Source: Melioribacteraceae bacterium
Lineage (GTDB): Bacteria > Bacteroidota > Ignavibacteria > Ignavibacteriales > Melioribacteraceae
Reading direction: 5' to 3'
Length of the DNA stretch: 64,000 nucleotides
Assembly (NCBI GenBank): GCA_015493615.1
Contig: WGCV01000019.1
Location: forward strand, 1-64,000
A program made the position numbers and the translations under genes. Below, piece by piece: positions 47,242-56,082 of the stretch; position 1 is the stretch's first letter, and each line of letters begins with the position of its first letter. The notes beneath the pieces were generated by a model. That model made no database searches and was not told the DNA's origin. It worked only from the letters and a program-made list of their open reading frames with translations.

Positions 47242-49233
47242 TTGAGAGTAATTTTTACAATAGCGTTATTTTTTGCGTTTTTAAATTCGCAAACCGTTTT
47301 TCCGTCCCAAAATGATTCGCTTCTCCAATCAATAAAAAAATTACCGAAAAAAGAACAACTTAATGTTTTGTTAAAAAACACTTGGAAGTTAAGAGCAAAA
47401 AATTCTTTCTTAGCTCTTAAGTATGGAAGAGCAGCGTTAAAGCTGGCGAAGGAAAAGAAAGATTTTTCCAAACTTGCCGAAGCAAACAGCTACCTCGGAG
47501 TAATTTATCGCAATATCAGCAAATATGATTCTTCGATTGTTTTTTACAATAAAGCTTTGAAGTACGCTCAAATTGCAAATGATTCAACTCAGCTTGCTTA
47601 CGCTTATAATAACATCGGCGGTTATAACGGCTACAAGCATCGCTATTTTTTGGCGTTGGAAAATGTTTTTTACGCAAAGAATATTTTTAAGAAAATCAAC
47701 AATTTAAGAGGAATGGCGTACTGCGACATTCAAGCCGGTTTGTGGTTTACAATTTTGGGAGTTTATGATAAAGCCGAAAAGTATTTGATTGAAGCCTTGC
47801 AGGTAAGGCAGCGTCTTAATGATAAATTCGGGATTACCGTCGCCCAATCGTTGCTTGCCGATCTTTATTACAAAGAGGGATTATATTACAAAGCTCAAAG
47901 TTTGTATTATTTAACTTTGAGGAAGTATCAAAAGTTCGGCGATATGAAAGGAATAGCCGCGTCATACGGAGGACTTGGAGGGATTGCCTACTATCAATAC
48001 AGGTACGGCGAAGCTTTGGCGTACAGACATAAATCTTTAAAAATTTTCAAAAAACTTTCGTATAAAATCGGGCTTGTGCTTAATTACAACGGCTTGGGAG
48101 TTATTTATAACGCGTTGGGAAAATATCCTAAAGCGTTGGAATATGAAAAGAAAGCCGAGCGGCAAGCTGAAGAGATTGATTACAAAGAAGGTTTATTAAA
48201 GGTTTATAAAAATCTCATTCTCATTTATAAAAACTACGATCTGAGTAAGGTTTCCGATTACGCGATTAAATTTGTCAATCTGCAGAAGGAAATTTCAAAC
48301 AACGAGATGAAAACAAGAGCCGAGGAGCTTGAGAAATTTATCGAATCGCAGGAAATTCTGAAAAAGAACTTATATCTCACGAACGCGTTGCAAAGGTCAA
48401 GGGCGATAATTATCACCGGATTAATCATTGTGATTGTTGTTGTATTTTTGTTTGTTATGGTTTACATCGAGTATCGTAAAAGAAAGCAGAAGGAAAAAGA
48501 ACTAGAAGCCGCGCTTAATGAGAAGAATAAATTGTTCAGTATTGTGGCTCACGATTTAAAAAATCCTTTTACTTCCATTTTGGGATATTCCGATTTGGTA
48601 CTTTCCGATTTTGATAATTTTGAAAAAGAAGATCTTCGGGAAGCTTTCGCAAACATGAGAAGTTCTTCCCAAAAATTGTTAAACATGGTTGAAAATATTT
48701 TAACTTGGGCGCGTTCTCAGTCCGGCAAACTGAAAGTTCATAAAGATAAATATGATTTGAATACTCTTCTTTTTAAGGTAACTTCTTATTTTACGCAATC
48801 GGCTCAAGCTAAAAATATTGATATTAAATTACAGTTCGAAGGAAAGCCGGTTTGTTATTGCGATAAAGATTTGTTTTCCACCGCCGTCAGAAATCTTTTC
48901 AATAACAGCATTAAATTTACCAGTCCCGGAGGGAAAATAATTGTTTCGACTCGTATTGACAAAGAAAGAGGGATGGCGATTGTGATTGTCGCCGATACGG
49001 GAATCGGGATGACCGACGAACAGTTGAAGAAAGTTTGGGATGTTAATAAGGAGTCGGGTATCGGCACGATGGGTGAAAAAGGGACGAGTTTGGGGCTTGT
49101 GCTTGTAAAAGAAGCCGTGGAATTAAACGGCGGAACAATATCTGTCGAAAGCGAGAAGAATGTAGGGACTGAGTTTGTTTTTACTGTACCGATTGTAAAC
49201 ATCTCCGAGGATGAATCCGACGAAGAAAAATAA
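47242..49233 (+). CDS. TPR-containing sensor histidine kinase
   Basis: A 663-residue kinase starting with TTG at 47242 and opening with a signal peptide (IFTIALFFAFLNSQTVFPSQ). Six to eight tetratricopeptide repeats fill residues about 60-350 (LAEANSYLGVIYRNISKYDS type). A membrane helix at about 390-410 (IIITGLIIVIVVVFLFVMVY) leads to HisKA with IVAHDLKNPFTSILGYSDLV (phosphorylated His) and HATPase with NLFNNSIKFTSPGG, VADTGIGM and GTSLGLVLVKEAV. The TPR part would be periplasmic. No receiver domain or response regulator is adjacent, so its partner is encoded elsewhere. The layout is common in Bacteroidota/Ignavibacteriota. It forms its own unit after the terminator. Confidence 0.88.
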   Translation: MRVIFTIALFFAFLNSQTVFPSQNDSLLQSIKKLPKKEQLNVLLKNTWKLRAKNSFLALKYGRAALKLAKEKKDFSKLAEANSYLGVIYRNISKYDSSIVFYNKALKYAQIANDSTQLAYAYNNIGGYNGYKHRYFLALENVFYAKNIFKKINNLRGMAYCDIQAGLWFTILGVYDKAEKYLIEALQVRQRLNDKFGITVAQSLLADLYYKEGLYYKAQSLYYLTLRKYQKFGDMKGIAASYGGLGGIAYYQYRYGEALAYRHKSLKIFKKLSYKIGLVLNYNGLGVIYNALGKYPKALEYEKKAERQAEEIDYKEGLLKVYKNLILIYKNYDLSKVSDYAIKFVNLQKEISNNEMKTRAEELEKFIESQEILKKNLYLTNALQRSRAIIITGLIIVIVVVFLFVMVYIEYRKRKQKEKELEAALNEKNKLFSIVAHDLKNPFTSILGYSDLVLSDFDNFEKEDLREAFANMRSSSQKLLNMVENILTWARSQSGKLKVHKDKYDLNTLLFKVTSYFTQSAQAKNIDIKLQFEGKPVCYCDKDLFSTAVRNLFNNSIKFTSPGGKIIVSTRIDKERGMAIVIVADTGIGMTDEQLKKVWDVNKESGIGTMGEKGTSLGLVLVKEAVELNGGTISVESEKNVGTEFVFTVPIVNISEDESDEEK

Positions 49234-49296
49234 CCTGTTTTGTTGCTCATGAGCCTACTTAAAAAAGGCGATTATTTGCAAATTCAATAATTTATA

Positions 49297-49399
49297 AACC
49301 GCTGAAGCGGTTACTGATTACTTTATGTAATTGCTAACCCACGACTTAAGTCGTGGGCTAATAGAATGCTTATTATACATTGCAACCGTTTCAACGGTT
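49297..49399. repeat. Cluster of three short palindromes
   Basis: AACCGCTGAAGCGGTT (49297-49312), CCCACGACTTAAGTCGTGGG (49338-49357) and AACCGTTTCAACGGTT (49384-49399) lie in the 290-base gap between the kinase and the giant ligase gene. Two have a four-base TGAA/TTCA centre. No gene is seen in the gap. Similar palindromes occur at 54426 and 56241. Confidence 0.75.
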
Positions 49400-49524
49400 T
49401 TTAGACCTTTCTTTAGTAAACTCACTCATGTTAACCTTTTGTTTCCAATAATTAATTACTGTTTGGGCTTTGCTCTGGAAGTTTGTAGTTTTAAAACAGA
49501 TTATATTTTTTTTCGAGGAGAATT

Positions 49525-52500
49525 ATGAATAATAGTCAGATTTTGGAGTCCCTTTCCGCAGGTATTGCTTCCTACAATGACGAATCCGTAAAAGAGCTTG
49601 TAAATAAAATTTCGGAGGAGTTCTTTAAAGATGTCGATAATAAAGAATCCGTAAGATTCAAAGATTATGAAAAATTATTTTCGCTTATAATTAAAAACGG
49701 CTTTGCCGAAAAATTTGCCGAACTAATTGCGCCGAAGGATTACTATAATCTCGGCGGTTTTTTTCTGAAAGCCGAAGAAACCGATAATTCCGTTCGCAAA
49801 ACAATTCACCTTTTTCTTGATATTTTTCGCCGATCGGAATTTTTGGTAAAAATTTATAACGACAGGAAATGGGACAAGCTCATCGAAGAGCTGATTCGTA
49901 AAAGTAATTTCCGCGTTAAAGAACTCTTTTATCAGCGGAGTAACTTCTACGGAAACAAAACGCTTTTTAATATTTTGGAAGGCGAAAAGGTTACTCCTTA
50001 CTCTTGGAAAGAGACCGAAAGAAATATCGAAAAATATGCCGCCGCTCTTAAATCTCTTCTTGCCGAGTTTAACGAGGATGTAAAAGTGGCTTTTCTCCTC
50101 GAAAACAGTTTAAGAATGGCTTGGTTGGATTTGGCTTGTTTAACAAACGGAATTGTAAACATCATGATTCCCGGCAATGCGGTTGCGGAACACATCGAGT
50201 TTATTCTTAGGCAAGCGGAAGCAAAAGTGATTTTTGTCGCAAATGAAAATCAGCTGGCAAAAGTTAAATCGGTTAAGCATAAACTCCCCGAATTAAAATG
50301 GATTGTTTTTCTTTCCGGTAGTTCCCTCGACGAAGACGTGATTACATTTAACGAATTTTTATCCTATGCGGAACGTTATGATATTGAGAAAGATTTCTAC
50401 AGCGGGAAAAAATACGGCGCGGATTCTCTCGCAACAATTATGTACACTTCGGGAACAACCGGCGAGCCGAAGGGAATTGAGTTTTCCCATATGAACATTG
50501 TCTTTAAGCGGTTTGCGCGCGCTATGGCAATTCCGCAAATAGGCGATAAGGACAGATATTTAAGTTACCTGCCGCTGTTTCATACTTTCGGAAGATACTT
50601 GGAAATGATGGGCAGCGTTTTCTGGGGAGCAGAATATTCCTTTATGGAAAATCCATCCGTTGAAACAATGATTGAAAATATGAATCTAATTAAGCCGACA
50701 ATCTTTATCAGCATTCCGAAAAAGTGGATTCAGCTTTACGATCAGATAAACGAACTTGTCGATATTGCCGTTGACGACGATGAGGAAATTAAAGCGGCTA
50801 TTTCAAAGGTAACGGGAGGCGCGTTGAAGTTCGGACTTTCGGCGGCGGGATATCTGCCTCCGGATATTTTTATCTTTTTTCAGAAGTACGGCGTTAATTT
50901 GATGAGCGGATTCGGAATGACCGAGGCGACGGGCGGAATAACGATGACTCCGATAGGCGAGTACTATGAAAATTCACTCGGAAAAGCTCTTCCCGGTATC
51001 GAGCTGAAATTAGCGGGAGACGGGGAATTGCTGATTCGCGGGGCTTACGTTACAATCGGTTATTTCAAGAATAAGGAAAATACTTTTGACTCCGACGGCT
51101 GGCTCCCGACCGGCGATATTATGAAGATGGACGTAAACGGCTTCATCGAAATTATCGACAGAAAAAAGGAAATTTATAAAAACATAAAAGGGGAGACGAT
51201 TGCGCCGCAGAAAATTGAAAACCTTTTCCGCGATTTCGATTTTGTAAAACAAGTTTTTCTCGTCGGCGATCACAAGCTGTTCAATACAGTTTTGATTTAT
51301 CCCAACTACGATTCCGAAACTTTGCTGAGTAAGAACTACAACGAAGAAGAGATGCGGGATATTTTTTCGTCGGTTGTGGTAACGGTAAATAAGTTTCTCG
51401 CTCCCTTTGAAAGAATTATAGATTTTAGAATTATCGATCGTCCTTTCTCGGCGGAACTTGGAGAGCTTACTCCCAAGGGGACATACAAACGGCGCGTAAT
51501 CGAAAAAAATTTTGAGCCGGTGATAAAGCGGATGTATGTGAAACAGTTTATCGAGTTGAAAAATCAGTCGGTAAATGTGCGCGTGCCGAATTGGTTTTTA
51601 CGGGAAAAGGGAAAACTGAGCGACGATATATTTTTTGATAATGACAGAATAAAAATCGCTGATGAAAAAGTTGAACTGCTTGTGGAAAAACTCGACGAAA
51701 CTAAATTCCGGATAGGGGATTTTGTTTATGAAATCACAACGCCGAAAATTGATTTGCAGCCGTTTTTGACAAATCCGATTTACTGGGTCGGGAATAAAGC
51801 GCTTTTCGATTTTTGCGGCGAGCCGATTTTTCAGTGGTACAGGAACAGAGAGCCTGAAAAGCATATCGGCTTTTATGCCGTTGCAGGCAAGGTCGAAAGC
51901 AATGTCAAAGATCTGGAAACGATAAAAAAACTTCATCTCGGCGGAGAGAAATCTCTATACGGATTAAACCTCGCCGCTTTTCTGATTCAGTCGGAGAACG
52001 AGGCGGAAGCGATGAGCGCCGCCAACTACATAAAATTTTTAAGCTCCGATTCAACGCTCCCGATATTCAAAATAGTTAAGGATCTAACGAAGCGTCCGCA
52101 GTTGACAAAGCACAAGTCAATCAGACGGGAACTGCTGAAAACCGCTATTCACATTTGCGAAAATAACAGACTTGATTGGCTTTTGGAAAGATACTTCAAA
52201 ATTGATTACGATATTTTGGATTCGGCGATTATGCGCGCGCTGATTGAGCGGAAAGCAAAAGATATTTTGGGAATAATCGAAAGACTTCTTAACAATACGC
52301 TTGTTGATTTTGCCGGAGAGGAACTTGTCAGAACGCCTATTCCCGCGCTTTTTTCTTTCCTCGAAAAGTATGTCGAACTCCATCCCACGAGCTACAGAAC
52401 AATCAGAAGAATTTTGGTGCAATATAAAATTCAGTCCGATAGGAAAGAGGTTTCGGAAGAAGCGAGCAAAACAAGGAACAAAATCCGATTGGGATTTAGA

Positions 52501-54273
52501 AAGTGGCTTGGGACAAACCAGCGCGTTGCGGTTGACGTGGAAACCGGCGACGAATATACTTGGGAAGACGTTGTAGTTTACGAGGAAAATATTGAGCCGG
52601 ACGATTTGCAAAGGATTAAAGAAGCGCTTGTCGAAACGCCTTTGATCCGTGAAGCGATTTTTTTCTTTTCGCAGGGAACGGTTCTCCGGTTGGACGATAT
52701 TCTTCCGTCGGGAATCTGGATTAGTTTTTACAAGAAGTTTTCCACGCATACAAGCTACCGCGTTTCCGTGCAGACGCGCTTTCACGGTTCGTATAATTTT
52801 ACGATAAATCTTAATGAAACTCTATCTTCCGAAAAAGTAACTTTGGAAAGCGATTGGCTGATAATCGCATGCTCGGCTGTTTCCGGTCAAAAGCTCACAA
52901 ACAAGTTCGGCGGCTATTGGGAAAAATACGAACTCTGGACAGAAGAATACAATCCGCAGGAAAACGTCGGTCATTATCTCGAGAGAATGTCAAAACATCC
53001 GGACGAAAAGAAGAGCGAACTGGTTTATCATATCTGGAGATTTTTTGTTTGGAACGCCGCTACGGCTTCACTGAACTTTATTAAATTATCCAAATATAAA
53101 TTGCAGCTTGCCGATTATTCCCCGGACAACTTTATTATTCCCAAACATGATTATCAAGTCGGGACGAGACTTGTCTCGATTGAAGAAAGAGTTCCTTACG
53201 TTTCTTCGTCGGGTTTTATCGGGGAATTCTATAACCGGTTTATTTCCGAGTCGGTTAAAAAATATCCTTATTTGAACCGTGATTCAATTTGGAACCAGAT
53301 TTATTCGGGAATAATTTCGGCTCTCGGCGAAGTTGAAGGAGTCGAATATCTTAACGGGTTTAAGTCGGAACTTTCATCGCAGTCTGATTTTCCGGATAAA
53401 GAAAACGCACTCTTGAGATTGAATTCCTTTTTGACGGATATTTCCGACGGCGTATTTATTCCCAAAAGATTATTCTTTGCGATTAACAGATTCAGGCGCT
53501 GGCTCAATTTGAACGAGGACGCGTCTATCGAAGCGCAGGCGTCAATGCTGAACGAGCTTTATTCGACGTACAGCTTGAATGAAATGGAAAAGCAACTGCC
53601 CGAAACAAGAATTAAGTTTTATTTTGAGACCTGTTTTAGGGATAGTTCGGACGAGGTTAAAGCCGAGTTTAAAAAGATAATCAAGGAATTCCATCATCGG
53701 AAAATTAAGCGTAAAGAGCTGCTTGTAATGCTTTCCGAGATTAAAGCGAAGTTTACTCTTTCCGATAAGGAGGAATATTTCCTTACGAGAATCAGTTATT
53801 CGCATATCCGCCCTGAAGATTCGGCGCAGATTATGAAGATTGGCGCCGGCGGACATGAAAAGGAAAATTTAATTGTGGAATTTTTCGATACCGACGGGAA
53901 CCCCTTTGTAATAAGGCGTCCGGTAACTCCTAAAGAAATTTCCCGTTTGCATCGTATGTTTCTTGACGCAAATCTCATGGTGAATTTTAATTCGGATCAC
54001 CAATTCCTTGTTGCCGTTTCTTCGCGCGGATTTATTATCGGCGGTCTTTTCTATTTTCCCGTTGACGAAAGCAGAGTACACATGGATAAGATTGTCGTCG
54101 CCGATCCTTTCCGGCGAAAAGGAATCAGCGATATTCTGATGAAGGAATTTTTTAACAGAATGAAAAACGAACGCTACGAATATGTTACAACGGGATTTTT
54201 CCGACCGGAGTATTTTTATAAGTTCGGTTTTAAGGTCGAAAGGAAATATTCGGGATTGGCAAAAAAATTGTAA
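49525..54273 (+). CDS. Giant fusion: acyl-CoA-synthetase-like domain plus GNAT-like C-terminus
   Basis: A 1582-residue soluble protein. Residues 1-110 are a helical lead. Residues about 125-700 form a complete AMP-binding domain of the long-chain acyl-CoA synthetase type: TIMYTSGTTGEPKGIEFSHM, YLPLFHTFGRYLEMM, LMSGFGMTEATGGITM, LPTGDIMKMDVNGFIEIIDR and a K-containing LTPKGTYKRRVIEKNF. Residues about 700-1430 match nothing I know; they contain a segment KYKLQLADYSPDNFIIPKHD resembling the catalytic loop of kinase-like phosphotransferases. The last 150 residues resemble a GNAT acetyltransferase: SRVHMDKIVVADPFRRKGIS with the R/Q-x-x-G-x-G/A pyrophosphate loop, and YKFGFKVERKYSG. An acyl group may be activated by one end and transferred by the other (inference). 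It appears as a single gene with a GAGGAG site. Confidence 0.8.
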   Translation: MNNSQILESLSAGIASYNDESVKELVNKISEEFFKDVDNKESVRFKDYEKLFSLIIKNGFAEKFAELIAPKDYYNLGGFFLKAEETDNSVRKTIHLFLDIFRRSEFLVKIYNDRKWDKLIEELIRKSNFRVKELFYQRSNFYGNKTLFNILEGEKVTPYSWKETERNIEKYAAALKSLLAEFNEDVKVAFLLENSLRMAWLDLACLTNGIVNIMIPGNAVAEHIEFILRQAEAKVIFVANENQLAKVKSVKHKLPELKWIVFLSGSSLDEDVITFNEFLSYAERYDIEKDFYSGKKYGADSLATIMYTSGTTGEPKGIEFSHMNIVFKRFARAMAIPQIGDKDRYLSYLPLFHTFGRYLEMMGSVFWGAEYSFMENPSVETMIENMNLIKPTIFISIPKKWIQLYDQINELVDIAVDDDEEIKAAISKVTGGALKFGLSAAGYLPPDIFIFFQKYGVNLMSGFGMTEATGGITMTPIGEYYENSLGKALPGIELKLAGDGELLIRGAYVTIGYFKNKENTFDSDGWLPTGDIMKMDVNGFIEIIDRKKEIYKNIKGETIAPQKIENLFRDFDFVKQVFLVGDHKLFNTVLIYPNYDSETLLSKNYNEEEMRDIFSSVVVTVNKFLAPFERIIDFRIIDRPFSAELGELTPKGTYKRRVIEKNFEPVIKRMYVKQFIELKNQSVNVRVPNWFLREKGKLSDDIFFDNDRIKIADEKVELLVEKLDETKFRIGDFVYEITTPKIDLQPFLTNPIYWVGNKALFDFCGEPIFQWYRNREPEKHIGFYAVAGKVESNVKDLETIKKLHLGGEKSLYGLNLAAFLIQSENEAEAMSAANYIKFLSSDSTLPIFKIVKDLTKRPQLTKHKSIRRELLKTAIHICENNRLDWLLERYFKIDYDILDSAIMRALIERKAKDILGIIERLLNNTLVDFAGEELVRTPIPALFSFLEKYVELHPTSYRTIRRILVQYKIQSDRKEVSEEASKTRNKIRLGFRKWLGTNQRVAVDVETGDEYTWEDVVVYEENIEPDDLQRIKEALVETPLIREAIFFFSQGTVLRLDDILPSGIWISFYKKFSTHTSYRVSVQTRFHGSYNFTINLNETLSSEKVTLESDWLIIACSAVSGQKLTNKFGGYWEKYELWTEEYNPQENVGHYLERMSKHPDEKKSELVYHIWRFFVWNAATASLNFIKLSKYKLQLADYSPDNFIIPKHDYQVGTRLVSIEERVPYVSSSGFIGEFYNRFISESVKKYPYLNRDSIWNQIYSGIISALGEVEGVEYLNGFKSELSSQSDFPDKENALLRLNSFLTDISDGVFIPKRLFFAINRFRRWLNLNEDASIEAQASMLNELYSTYSLNEMEKQLPETRIKFYFETCFRDSSDEVKAEFKKIIKEFHHRKIKRKELLVMLSEIKAKFTLSDKEEYFLTRISYSHIRPEDSAQIMKIGAGGHEKENLIVEFFDTDGNPFVIRRPVTPKEISRLHRMFLDANLMVNFNSDHQFLVAVSSRGFIIGGLFYFPVDESRVHMDKIVVADPFRRKGISDILMKEFFNRMKNERYEYVTTGFFRPEYFYKFGFKVERKYSGLAKKL

Positions 54274-54636: not shown

Positions 54637-54699
54637 AAACCCTTGAAAAACTAACTAAAAAAACTTATGTTATTATTTAACCGGACGAATGGAATTGAT

Positions 54700-56082
54700 A
54701 TGACATTTAAACAAATCTTTAAATACAAATACTTGAAGGCTTTTGGCGGTCTAATCATAATCTTGTTTTTTGCGCTTGCCTCTTGCAGAGAAGAACCCAC
54801 TCAACCGCCGGCGGGAATAACCGAAGTTAAAAACACGGTAATTTTAAGCTCGCCTTGGCAAGAGATGCACCGATACGCAATAAAATGGACAAGGTCGTTA
54901 GTTGACACAAACAAGAGATTAACCTACATACTAAAACGAAAAGATGCTGAAGGTTTAGAAACCGGAAACACTTATTACTTAACCGGAAAAGATACGACAA
55001 TAATAGAGGGAAGCGAAACAAGCCCGATACCCGAAGGGGCGTTGTTTAATTACAAAATGGAAGTTTATAACGATGCCGGAGAATTGCTTGATACGAGCAA
55101 AAGTATAATAACCGGAACGCTTAATACTACCGGCGCAAATTTTATGTGGGAAATTGATACGCTTGGGATACCAGGGGACTATCTATATGCTGTTTGGGGA
55201 ACAGATACAAATAATGTTTGGGCGGTAGGGAGAGTAAATTTTAATGAAGGCAAAACCGCAATCATTAAATGGAACGGTACAGAATGGAGTTACCATTCGT
55301 GGCCACTAGCTAGCATTTATTCAATCTATGGATTTAGTGAAAATGATATTTGGGTAGTTGGTGAATCTTCAAACCGAAGTTTTATCGGACACTATAAGGA
55401 CGGCGAATGGACGGAGTACAGAAGCGATTATTTTTACTCGCGCGGAGATACGGTTTACGCCTTGTGGGGCGTATGGGGAGCGAGTCCGGACGATGTTTGG
55501 GCGGTGGGGTATAACGGTACAATAGTGCATTGGAATGGAGAAAACTGGGATAAAGTTGAAAGCGGAACGAAAGCAAATATGACCGGCATATGGGGAGTTT
55601 CTGCAACGGAAATATATGCCGTTTCTCCATTTATTATAATAGACAATGTTATACATTTTGAAGGAAATACTTTTTTATATGACGGTGAAAGTTGGAGCAA
55701 TATACAATCAGAAGTAGGCGAATCAAGTGGGCCATTGAGGCAAACACAATTTTACCCAAATGGATGTGGAGTTGCAGTAGGCAGAAATGTTTATATAAAA
55801 GATAATACGGGATGGCATTTGCAAGTAGAAGTGCCGCGTATCGGAAATCAATGGGGCAGAGTAGGAGGAACTAATATAAATGATGTAATGATACTCGGTA
55901 TAGACGGTTCTGTAACAAGTAGAATTATGCATTATAATGGAGAACATTGGGAAACAATATCGATAAACGGTTCTACAACTATTCCAATGATAATTGGAGG
56001 AGTACAATTGTTTAAGAAGAAAGTTTTCATTGTAGGAAAAAATAATAATCACATAATAATTTACAGAGGAGAAAGAAAATAA
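54700..56082 (+). CDS. Lipoprotein with beta-propeller-type repeats
   Basis: About 460 residues from the ATG at 54700; a start 33 bases earlier lacks a better ribosome site and would lengthen the signal peptide. A lipoprotein signal (LIIILFFALASC, lipobox LAS-C) anchors it in the membrane, followed by a short Pro-rich stretch. Residues about 60-150 look like a fibronectin-III-like domain. Then repeated units of the form LWGVWGASPDDVWAVGYNGT then IVHWNGENWDKV occur about six times (for example VWGTDTNNVWAVG, IYGFSENDIWVVG), as in surface propellers of Bacteroidota and relatives. Likely faces the periplasm or cell surface; ligand unknown. A remnant of a paralogue precedes it. Confidence 0.75.
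   Translation: MTFKQIFKYKYLKAFGGLIIILFFALASCREEPTQPPAGITEVKNTVILSSPWQEMHRYAIKWTRSLVDTNKRLTYILKRKDAEGLETGNTYYLTGKDTTIIEGSETSPIPEGALFNYKMEVYNDAGELLDTSKSIITGTLNTTGANFMWEIDTLGIPGDYLYAVWGTDTNNVWAVGRVNFNEGKTAIIKWNGTEWSYHSWPLASIYSIYGFSENDIWVVGESSNRSFIGHYKDGEWTEYRSDYFYSRGDTVYALWGVWGASPDDVWAVGYNGTIVHWNGENWDKVESGTKANMTGIWGVSATEIYAVSPFIIIDNVIHFEGNTFLYDGESWSNIQSEVGESSGPLRQTQFYPNGCGVAVGRNVYIKDNTGWHLQVEVPRIGNQWGRVGGTNINDVMILGIDGSVTSRIMHYNGEHWETISINGSTTIPMIIGGVQLFKKKVFIVGKNNNHIIIYRGERK

What the first reader, a model, noticed from the sequence alone, without database searches (positions are those of the whole stretch)
49525..54273. 1582-residue ligase-acyltransferase fusion with a large unknown middle
An acyl-activating domain and a GNAT-like domain in one chain, separated by about 700 residues of no recognised family that include a kinase-loop-like stretch (LADYSPDNFII), suggest a self-contained acyl-transfer machine, for a lipid, protein or small-molecule target. 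No carrier or partner genes surround it, so all functions may be internal. I know of no named family with this layout.
Basis: inference. Interest (0 to 1): 0.7.

Follow-up and report, generated by a model that had tools for sequence, protein, structure and literature searches.

The report
Fatty-acid ligase joined to acyltransferase
A long single bacterial protein joins a fatty-acid-activating enzyme at its front to an acyltransferase at its back through a middle of no catalogued family; related bacteria keep the same layout, and it may be an independently evolved counterpart of known ligase-acetyltransferase regulators, but its activity is untested.

Summary
Window 49525-54273 (+) encodes 1582 aa: an AMP-forming, long-chain-type acyl ligase (129-675), about 765 aa (676-1440) of no catalogued family, and a GNAT domain (1441-1582). 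It is a conserved family, not an isolated fusion: 42 full-length homologues were read, and a profile of the middle finds it in 54 of 391 genomes of the class, in one frame of at least 1515 aa in 50 of the 54. It was not found in the rest of a 395-genome phylum sample, in plasmids or in IMG/VR. The middle splits, tentatively, into a small conserved region, HEAT/ARM-like helices and a protein-kinase-like fold whose catalytic Asp is not conserved (D in 11 of 43), so more likely a pseudokinase than a kinase. Among solved structures the GNAT profile is closest to GCN5 histone acetyltransferase. Best reading: a protein N-acyltransferase physically coupled to an adenylating ligase. That is the plan of the Pat/PatZ acetyltransferases, built from an unrelated ligase that here looks intact. 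Acyl chain, target and direction of coupling are not shown. Citrate synthase lies just upstream in many relatives, but this looks like inherited gene order rather than partnership.

The parts
49515..49521 (+). Shine-Dalgarno-like GAGGAGA before the ATG
   Evidence: read directly
49525..49908 (+). residues 1-128: variable N-terminal region
   Evidence: mean identity to window 0.30 / 0.20 / 0.11 in near / far / f4 members; no Pfam match above a cut-off
49909..51549 (+). residues 129-675: AMP-forming acyl ligase (ANL superfamily, long-chain type by resemblance)
   Evidence: Pfam AMP-binding and AMP-binding_C_3; core motif residues at least 93% identical in 43 members; K651 in 43 of 43
51550..51894 (+). 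residues 676-790: conserved region particular to the family, begins where the paralogous ligase L002 ends
   Evidence: invariant P688, W690, G731, W754, N757 (A1 columns 13, 15, 56, 79, 82); L002 ends at the matching place
51895..52524 (+). residues 791-1000: helical repeats, HEAT/ARM-like (tentative)
   Evidence: helices in model 1 with block pLDDT 54-81 over residues 796-995; HEAT proteins such as PP2A A subunit among Foldseek matches, none at E <= 0.001
52642..53424 (+). residues about 1040-1300: protein-kinase-like fold with degenerate active site (tentative)
   Evidence: hhalign to protein kinases above 60 of 60 shuffles; Foldseek and VIA lists dominated by kinases, not significant
53107..53139 (+). 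LADYSPDNFII, residues 1195-1205: the kinase catalytic-loop equivalent
   Evidence: hhalign places it opposite the HRDxKxxN loop of kinases; Asp D in 11 of 43, Asn N in 38 of 43
53425..53844 (+). residues 1301-1440: helical connecting segment
   Evidence: helices in model 1; invariant W1326, R1362, T1369
53845..54270 (+). residues 1441-1582: GNAT domain, GCN5-like
   Evidence: Pfam Acetyltransf_1 in 43 of 43 members; best PDB profile match Tetrahymena GCN5, E 4.9e-11
54112..54129 (+). RRKGIS, residues 1530-1535: GNAT acyl-CoA binding motif A
   Evidence: R1530 in 41 of 43, G1533 in 43 of 43, residue 1535 S 28 / G 12 / A 3

Best explanation
It is a protein N-acyltransferase (writer of lysine or N-terminal acylation) whose GNAT domain is physically coupled to an adenylating, long-chain-type acyl ligase. 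The ligase activates a fatty acid with ATP and CoA and either hands the acyl-CoA to the GNAT domain or reports fatty-acid/acyl-CoA status to it. The HEAT-like helices and the pseudokinase-like domain between them would hold the protein target and the two enzymes in place. In plan this is what Pat/PatZ/YfiQ acetyltransferases do with an NDP-forming ligase domain, reached with a different ligase superfamily. Shown here: the layout, its conservation, the family-level identity of both ends. Supported but weak: kinase-like fold, HEAT-like helices, GCN5 affinity. Inferred only: protein target, acyl chain, coupling, direction of control.
For: Both ends conserve their signature residues: ligase core motifs at least 93% identical in 43 members, K651 in 43 of 43, GNAT G1533 in 43 of 43 and R1530 in 41 of 43, acidic residue 1521 in 40 of 43. 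The ligase is the segment best conserved to distant members (0.62 / 0.39 / 0.36), which argues for a working enzyme. The GNAT profile's best solved match is Tetrahymena GCN5, a protein lysine acetyltransferase (E 4.9e-11; next unrelated GNAT 1.1e-5; human KAT2A 3.6e-5). Pat-type enzymes set the precedent: N-terminal acyl-CoA synthetase domain, C-terminal GNAT, the former sensing acetyl-CoA (PMC6456759 section 5 part 1; PMC8556138 passages). The scaffold-like middle suits a macromolecular target.
Against: No enzymatic, structural or genetic evidence for any step. The Glu of Tetrahymena GCN5 that I recall as its general base aligns with H1519 (H in 23 of 43, E in 3). The GNAT tyrosine position 1565 is Y in only 28 of 43. 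Distant members keep only 18-29% GNAT identity. GCN5 comes out best among PDB chains only, which is a biased sample. Sirtuins, possible erasers, occur in 55 of 58 relatives irrespective of this protein, and the three without one all carry it. Nothing tells acetyl from long-chain acyl.
Confidence: 0.4

Rival explanations
1. A built-in brake: the GNAT domain acetylates a lysine of the ligase in the same chain and switches it off, as Pat does to acetyl-CoA synthetase in trans. The protein is then a self-regulated fatty acyl-CoA synthetase.
For: Pat acetylates and inactivates Acs (PMC6456759 section 5). K651 in the ligase C-terminal subdomain is K in 43 of 43. Ligase and GNAT are found in one chain in all 42 homologues read.
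Against: Which lysine is catalytic is not settled: the own-genome ligase L002 has K at the same column, L004 has T there and K two further on. It does not explain 765 residues of conserved middle. The Pat target motif I recall from the literature (PX4GK) is not present around K651 (GELTPKGTYKRR).
Confidence: 0.22
2. A one-protein N-acyl-amine or aminolipid synthase: the ligase makes long-chain acyl-CoA and the GNAT domain puts the chain on an amino acid, polyamine or other small amine.
For: GNAT acyltransferases make N-acylated amino acids in bacteria, and single-protein lipid synthases such as OlsF occur in Bacteroidetes (PMC11631085 passages). The ligase is nearest to long-chain types.
Against: The GNAT matches Acetyltransf_1 and GCN5, not the aminolipid N-acyltransferases or autoinducer synthases. 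No O-acyltransferase domain in the chain, and no carrier or acyltransferase neighbour was noticed in the window. A small-molecule enzyme does not need the large scaffold.
Confidence: 0.2
3. Citrate synthase partner: the protein regulates the adjacent citrate synthase, for example by acylating it according to acyl-CoA supply.
For: Citrate synthase (NCBIfam PRK09569) is upstream on the same strand within five genes in 20 of 42 homologous loci, and immediately upstream in 15.
Against: The citrate synthase query matches in 57 of 58 relatives whether or not this protein is present (weakly, under 35% identity, in several). In 6 of 7 related genomes of the same family that lack the protein and were examined, the order citrate synthase ... 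pyrG persists without it. In the window's genus it lies elsewhere. Intergenic gaps are mostly 90-240 bases.
Confidence: 0.05

Closest known systems
Pat / PatZ / YfiQ / Pka lysine acetyltransferases (class I-alpha, types I and II)
   Same: Large single chain with an acyl-CoA-synthetase-type domain and one GNAT domain; in type I the GNAT is C-terminal (PMC6456759 section 5).
   Different: There the ligase domain is NDP-forming and reported as catalytically inactive (PMC8556138 passages). Here it is AMP-forming with its core motifs kept, and 765 residues of unknown middle stand between.
Long-chain fatty acyl-CoA synthetases (FadD11/FadD15-like, ANL superfamily)
   Same: Residues 129-675 align over their whole length with such ligases, for example L002 of the same genome.
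   Different: Ordinary members end where residue 675 is; here 907 residues follow, and no NCBIfam cut-off is reached among the 25 best models shown.
GCN5/PCAF histone acetyltransferases
   Same: Best PDB profile match of the GNAT domain, E 4.9e-11.
   Different: No bromodomain in the chain; the catalytic Glu position is H in the window; only the GNAT core (profile 46-136 of 143) aligns.
Protein kinases and pseudokinases (Bud32/PRPK highest in the VIA list)
   Same: Predicted order of elements and catalytic-loop register.
   Different: Catalytic Asp not conserved, no conserved Asp at the DFG place; significance not reached.
Aas-type acyl-ACP synthetase / phospholipid O-acyltransferase
   Same: Ligase and acyltransferase in one chain; NCBIfam models PRK06814 and PRK08633 hit the ligase part.
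   Different: Their acyltransferase is of another family (recalled as PlsC-type), absent here.

Membership tests
Class I-alpha KAT (Pat/PatZ) | one GNAT domain in a large multidomain chain, C-terminal in type I | tested here: met
   definition
[quoted passage not shown]
   Pfam at E <= 1 lists AMP-binding and AMP-binding_C_3 and no NDP-forming ligase domain
Class I-alpha KAT (Pat/PatZ) | transfers acetyl to protein lysines | not testable with these tools
   needs biochemistry
ANL superfamily, AMP-forming acyl ligase | AMP-binding domain with core motifs and C-terminal subdomain | tested here: met
   (155-514 and 554-673); motif conservation
ANL superfamily, long-chain fatty acyl-CoA synthetase | long-chain fatty acid as substrate | not testable with these tools
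   resemblance only; NCBIfam cut-offs not reached
GNAT superfamily | Pfam GNAT profile | tested here: met
   Acetyltransf_1 at E <= 0.01 in 43 of 43 members; window member 30.2 bits, cut-off 20.7
GNAT superfamily | motif A, R/Q-x-x-G-x-G/A (recalled) | tested here: inconclusive
   R 41 of 43, first G 43 of 43, last position S 28, G 12, A 3
GCN5/PCAF family | catalytic Glu of the GCN5 GNAT domain (position recalled) | tested here: not met
   aligns with H1519; E in 3 of 43
GCN5/PCAF family | bromodomain | tested here: not met
   none among Pfam families at E <= 1
Protein kinase superfamily | protein-kinase fold | tested here: inconclusive
   hhalign 0 of 60 shuffles reach it but probability 3.8%; Foldseek best E 0.34; VIA Z 7.1, rmsd 4.0, 119 aligned; model pLDDT 50.8
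Protein kinase superfamily | catalytic-loop Asp | tested here: not met
   position 1197: N 16, D 11, A 5, others 11 of 43
Protein kinase superfamily | DFG Asp | tested here: not met
   the only residue at 93% or more between 1176 and 1250 is S1218
Aas-type ligase-acyltransferase | O-acyltransferase (PlsC-type) domain | tested here: not met
   not among Pfam families at E <= 1

The most novel reading that the evidence does not exclude
A single-chain protein fatty-acylation writer: it makes its own long-chain acyl-CoA and transfers the chain to lysines of protein targets held by a HEAT/pseudokinase scaffold. This would be a self-fuelled, lineage-specific modification system unlike the acetyl-CoA-dependent KATs described.
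Probability: 0.2. Interest if true: 0.8.

Novelty: new variant of a known kind. Interest (0 to 1): 0.5.

Why it matters
If the coupling is real, two unrelated ligase superfamilies were independently joined to a GNAT acyltransferase, which would make ligase-GNAT coupling a recurrent design for tying acylation to acyl-CoA supply. Because the ligase here looks active and of long-chain type, the family is a good place to test the question, left open in a 2021 review (passage in PMC8556138), whether some bacterial GNATs prefer longer acyl chains. The middle also holds about 765 conserved residues that no library names, including a probable pseudokinase.

Tried and rejected
Active kinase: rejected, catalytic Asp and DFG Asp not conserved. 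Kinship to aminoglycoside-phosphotransferase-type kinases: not supported for the whole set (26 of 60 shuffles reach the score) nor for near members (54 of 60), though far members exceed all 60. The Pkinase signal is itself weaker in near members alone (1 of 60). Two unrelated controls came close to the kinase E-value of 0.011: the family's own N-terminal segment 0.022 and purN 0.025, of 21 controls. The kinase sets were 26 of 30 fetched Pkinase loci and 10 of 30 APH loci; the rest were dropped because no motif-bearing frame, or for APH none of 250-520 aa, was found.

Citrate synthase as partner: downgraded. Sirtuin co-occurrence: uninformative, 55 of 58. Structure prediction of the middle: only three sequences could be used, so confidence is low (46.4 and 50.8 mean pLDDT); this must not be read as an unusual fold. 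Profile search of PDB with the middle: nothing below E 2, and with the kinase-like part nothing below E 0.042. Plasmids and IMG/VR: no homologue. Other phyla were not searched apart from those and one pattern scan of genome contigs (2 loci). Dropped rows: G166 (97-aa frame, E 1.1e-4) from the class count of 55, giving 54; G418 and G486 (short frames matching only the helical part) from the phylum count of 23, giving 21. Paper searches for the layout: searches listed no paper describing it as far as titles and abstract starts show; one search was for N-acyltransferases.

Full report
What is there. The open frame 49525-54273 (+) encodes 1582 residues and starts behind GAGGAGA. Pfam recognises an AMP-forming ligase (AMP-binding 155-514, AMP-binding_C_3 554-673) and a C-terminal GNAT (Acetyltransf_1 1488-1569), and nothing above a cut-off between them. 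The ligase aligns end to end with ligases of the same genome. The 610-aa-frame paralogue L002 is the closest (38% over residues 427-708) and stops just where residue 675 is, so the unknown middle begins exactly at the end of an ordinary ligase.

Host. The 98% match L009 (middle plus GNAT) and the 42% match L010 are records titled Melioribacteraceae bacterium, a family of Ignavibacteria in NCBI taxonomy. That the window belongs there is inference.

It is a family. Single-protein search with residues 680-1582 found it in 39 of 58 relatives and 54 of 391 genomes of the class. A profile of the middle (A1, 43 members) gave 55 of 391, of which I drop one weak short match, leaving 54: 26 in the window's own family f1, 16 in f3, 3 in f2, 5 in f4, 4 in f21. 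Counts include the own genome. In 50 of these 54 the stop-to-stop frame is at least 1515 aa; the other four are 1431, 1108, 498 and, on two contigs, 543 and 869 aa. One of them starts at base 3 of its contig and was not examined further, nor were the others. In a 395-genome sample of the phylum, 21 of 23 matches are real and all lie in the same class; two are partial matches to the helical region. No match in PLSDB or IMG/VR.

Conservation. Forty-two homologues from 42 genomes were extracted and aligned with the window protein. Mean identity to the window for near, far and f4 members is 0.62/0.39/0.36 for the ligase, 0.63/0.29/0.18 for the GNAT, 0.42/0.27/0.24 for 676-790, 0.31/0.12/0.08 for 791-1000 and 0.42/0.19/0.15 for 1010-1300. 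Pairwise identities of the segments correlate at 0.73-0.96, as expected if the chain is inherited as a whole.

Ligase. The phosphate loop T308-S309-G310-T312-G313-K316-G317, the GMTE motif and D531, R546 and K651 are at least 93% identical (K651 43 of 43). Long-chain type is inferred from resemblance: the top NCBIfam models are long-chain fatty-acid ligases, far below their cut-offs, and PDB matches are led by carboxylic acid reductase adenylation domains and general AMP-binding ligases. Which lysine is the catalytic one is uncertain, because paralogues place lysines differently here.

Middle. Pfam at E <= 0.1 matches no family in more than 2 of 43 members. PDB profile search gives nothing below E 2 or, for the kinase-like part, below 0.042. 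Residues 676-790 hold invariant P688, W690, G731, W754 and N757. Residues 796-995 were modelled as paired helices with block pLDDT 54-81, with HEAT proteins among non-significant Foldseek matches.

Kinase-like part. hhalign of the family profile (1010-1345) against 26 protein kinases from relatives gives score 26.0, E 0.011, probability 3.8%, and puts LADYSPDNFI opposite the kinase catalytic loop and WTEEYNPQENVGHYL opposite the hinge. None of 60 block shuffles reaches it. Far members alone give 25.7 (0 of 60) in the same register and near members alone 22.7 (1 of 60). Of 21 other comparisons the best E-values were 0.022 and 0.025, so the margin is small. A model of 1030-1345 (pLDDT 50.8, pTM 0.52) retrieves kinases as all of its top eight Foldseek hits and, by my count, 27 of the top 50, but with E 0.34 and worse and TM-scores near 0.2 or below. 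VIA-align gives Z 7.1 to PRPK (rmsd 4.0, 119 aligned) and, by my count, kinases in 45 of 50 rows, which the tool warns is within the usual range for models without a true match. I take a kinase-like fold as likely, not shown. The catalytic Asp is D in 11 of 43 members and N in 16; the loop Asn is N in 38 of 43; no Asp is conserved at the DFG place. A working kinase is therefore unlikely.

GNAT. All 43 members match Acetyltransf_1. The profile's best solved matches are Tetrahymena GCN5 entries at 4.9e-11 to 6.1e-11, then an unrelated GNAT at 1.1e-5 and human KAT2A at 3.6e-5. Motif A is kept. The Glu that I recall as GCN5's base aligns with H1519, while residue 1521 is acidic in 40 of 43.

Surroundings. 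In the window the neighbours are ftsA and ftsZ (named by recall from the translations), a TPR histidine kinase (47242-49233) and a propeller-like protein (54667-56082). In relatives the gene sits behind citrate synthase in 20 of 42 loci, directly in 15. Other neighbours, named by recall from their sequences, are squalene-synthesis genes upstream and pyrG, purN, purH, mreB, mreC and mreD downstream, the latter run in 11 loci. Citrate synthase matches in 57 of 58 relatives, and 6 of 7 examined f1 genomes without the protein keep citrate synthase and pyrG near each other without it. I read this as inherited order.

Comparison with the known. [quoted passage not shown] The NDP-forming domain is described as inactive and acetyl-CoA-sensing (PMC8556138 passages). 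None of the classes in what I read has an AMP-forming ligase. The protein works, in my best reading, like a Pat, but is not a member of that class, because the defining ligase type was tested and not met.

Verdict. A real, conserved and unnamed multidomain family; new variant of a known kind. The acyl-transfer coupling is the most economical reading at 0.4, with a built-in brake (0.22) and an N-acyl-amine synthase (0.2) as serious rivals.

Noticed in passing
window 49293-49403: Intergenic multi-palindrome element, REP-like, between the histidine kinase and this gene. Its core palindrome CCCACGACTTAAGTCGTGGG occurs at 16 places in the genome with at most one mismatch, against 0 for the reversed control.
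   Followed up: partly
window 47242-49233: Protein with TPR repeats, a transmembrane stretch by eye, and HisKA plus HATPase_c domains.
   Followed up: no
window 54667-56082: Signal-peptide-like protein of propeller type (Rax2 weak match below cut-off), 394 bases downstream.
   Followed up: no
L010, L050, L052, L079 and similar loci: Recurrent gene order in the family: penicillin-binding protein, two squalene-synthase-like genes, an HpnE-like gene, citrate synthase, this protein, pyrG, a TPR protein, purN, purH, mreB, mreC, mreD (most names by recall).
   Followed up: partly
L051 and L076, immediately upstream of the homologue: A lytic-transglycosylase-like gene (by eye) ends 4 bases before the homologue in both loci, and similar genes occupy the citrate synthase-pyrG gap in some genomes without the homologue.
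   Followed up: partly
G358:C1:3117165-3119432: A homologue in a single-contig genome with a frame of only 1431 aa, possibly truncated or frameshifted at its start.
   Followed up: no
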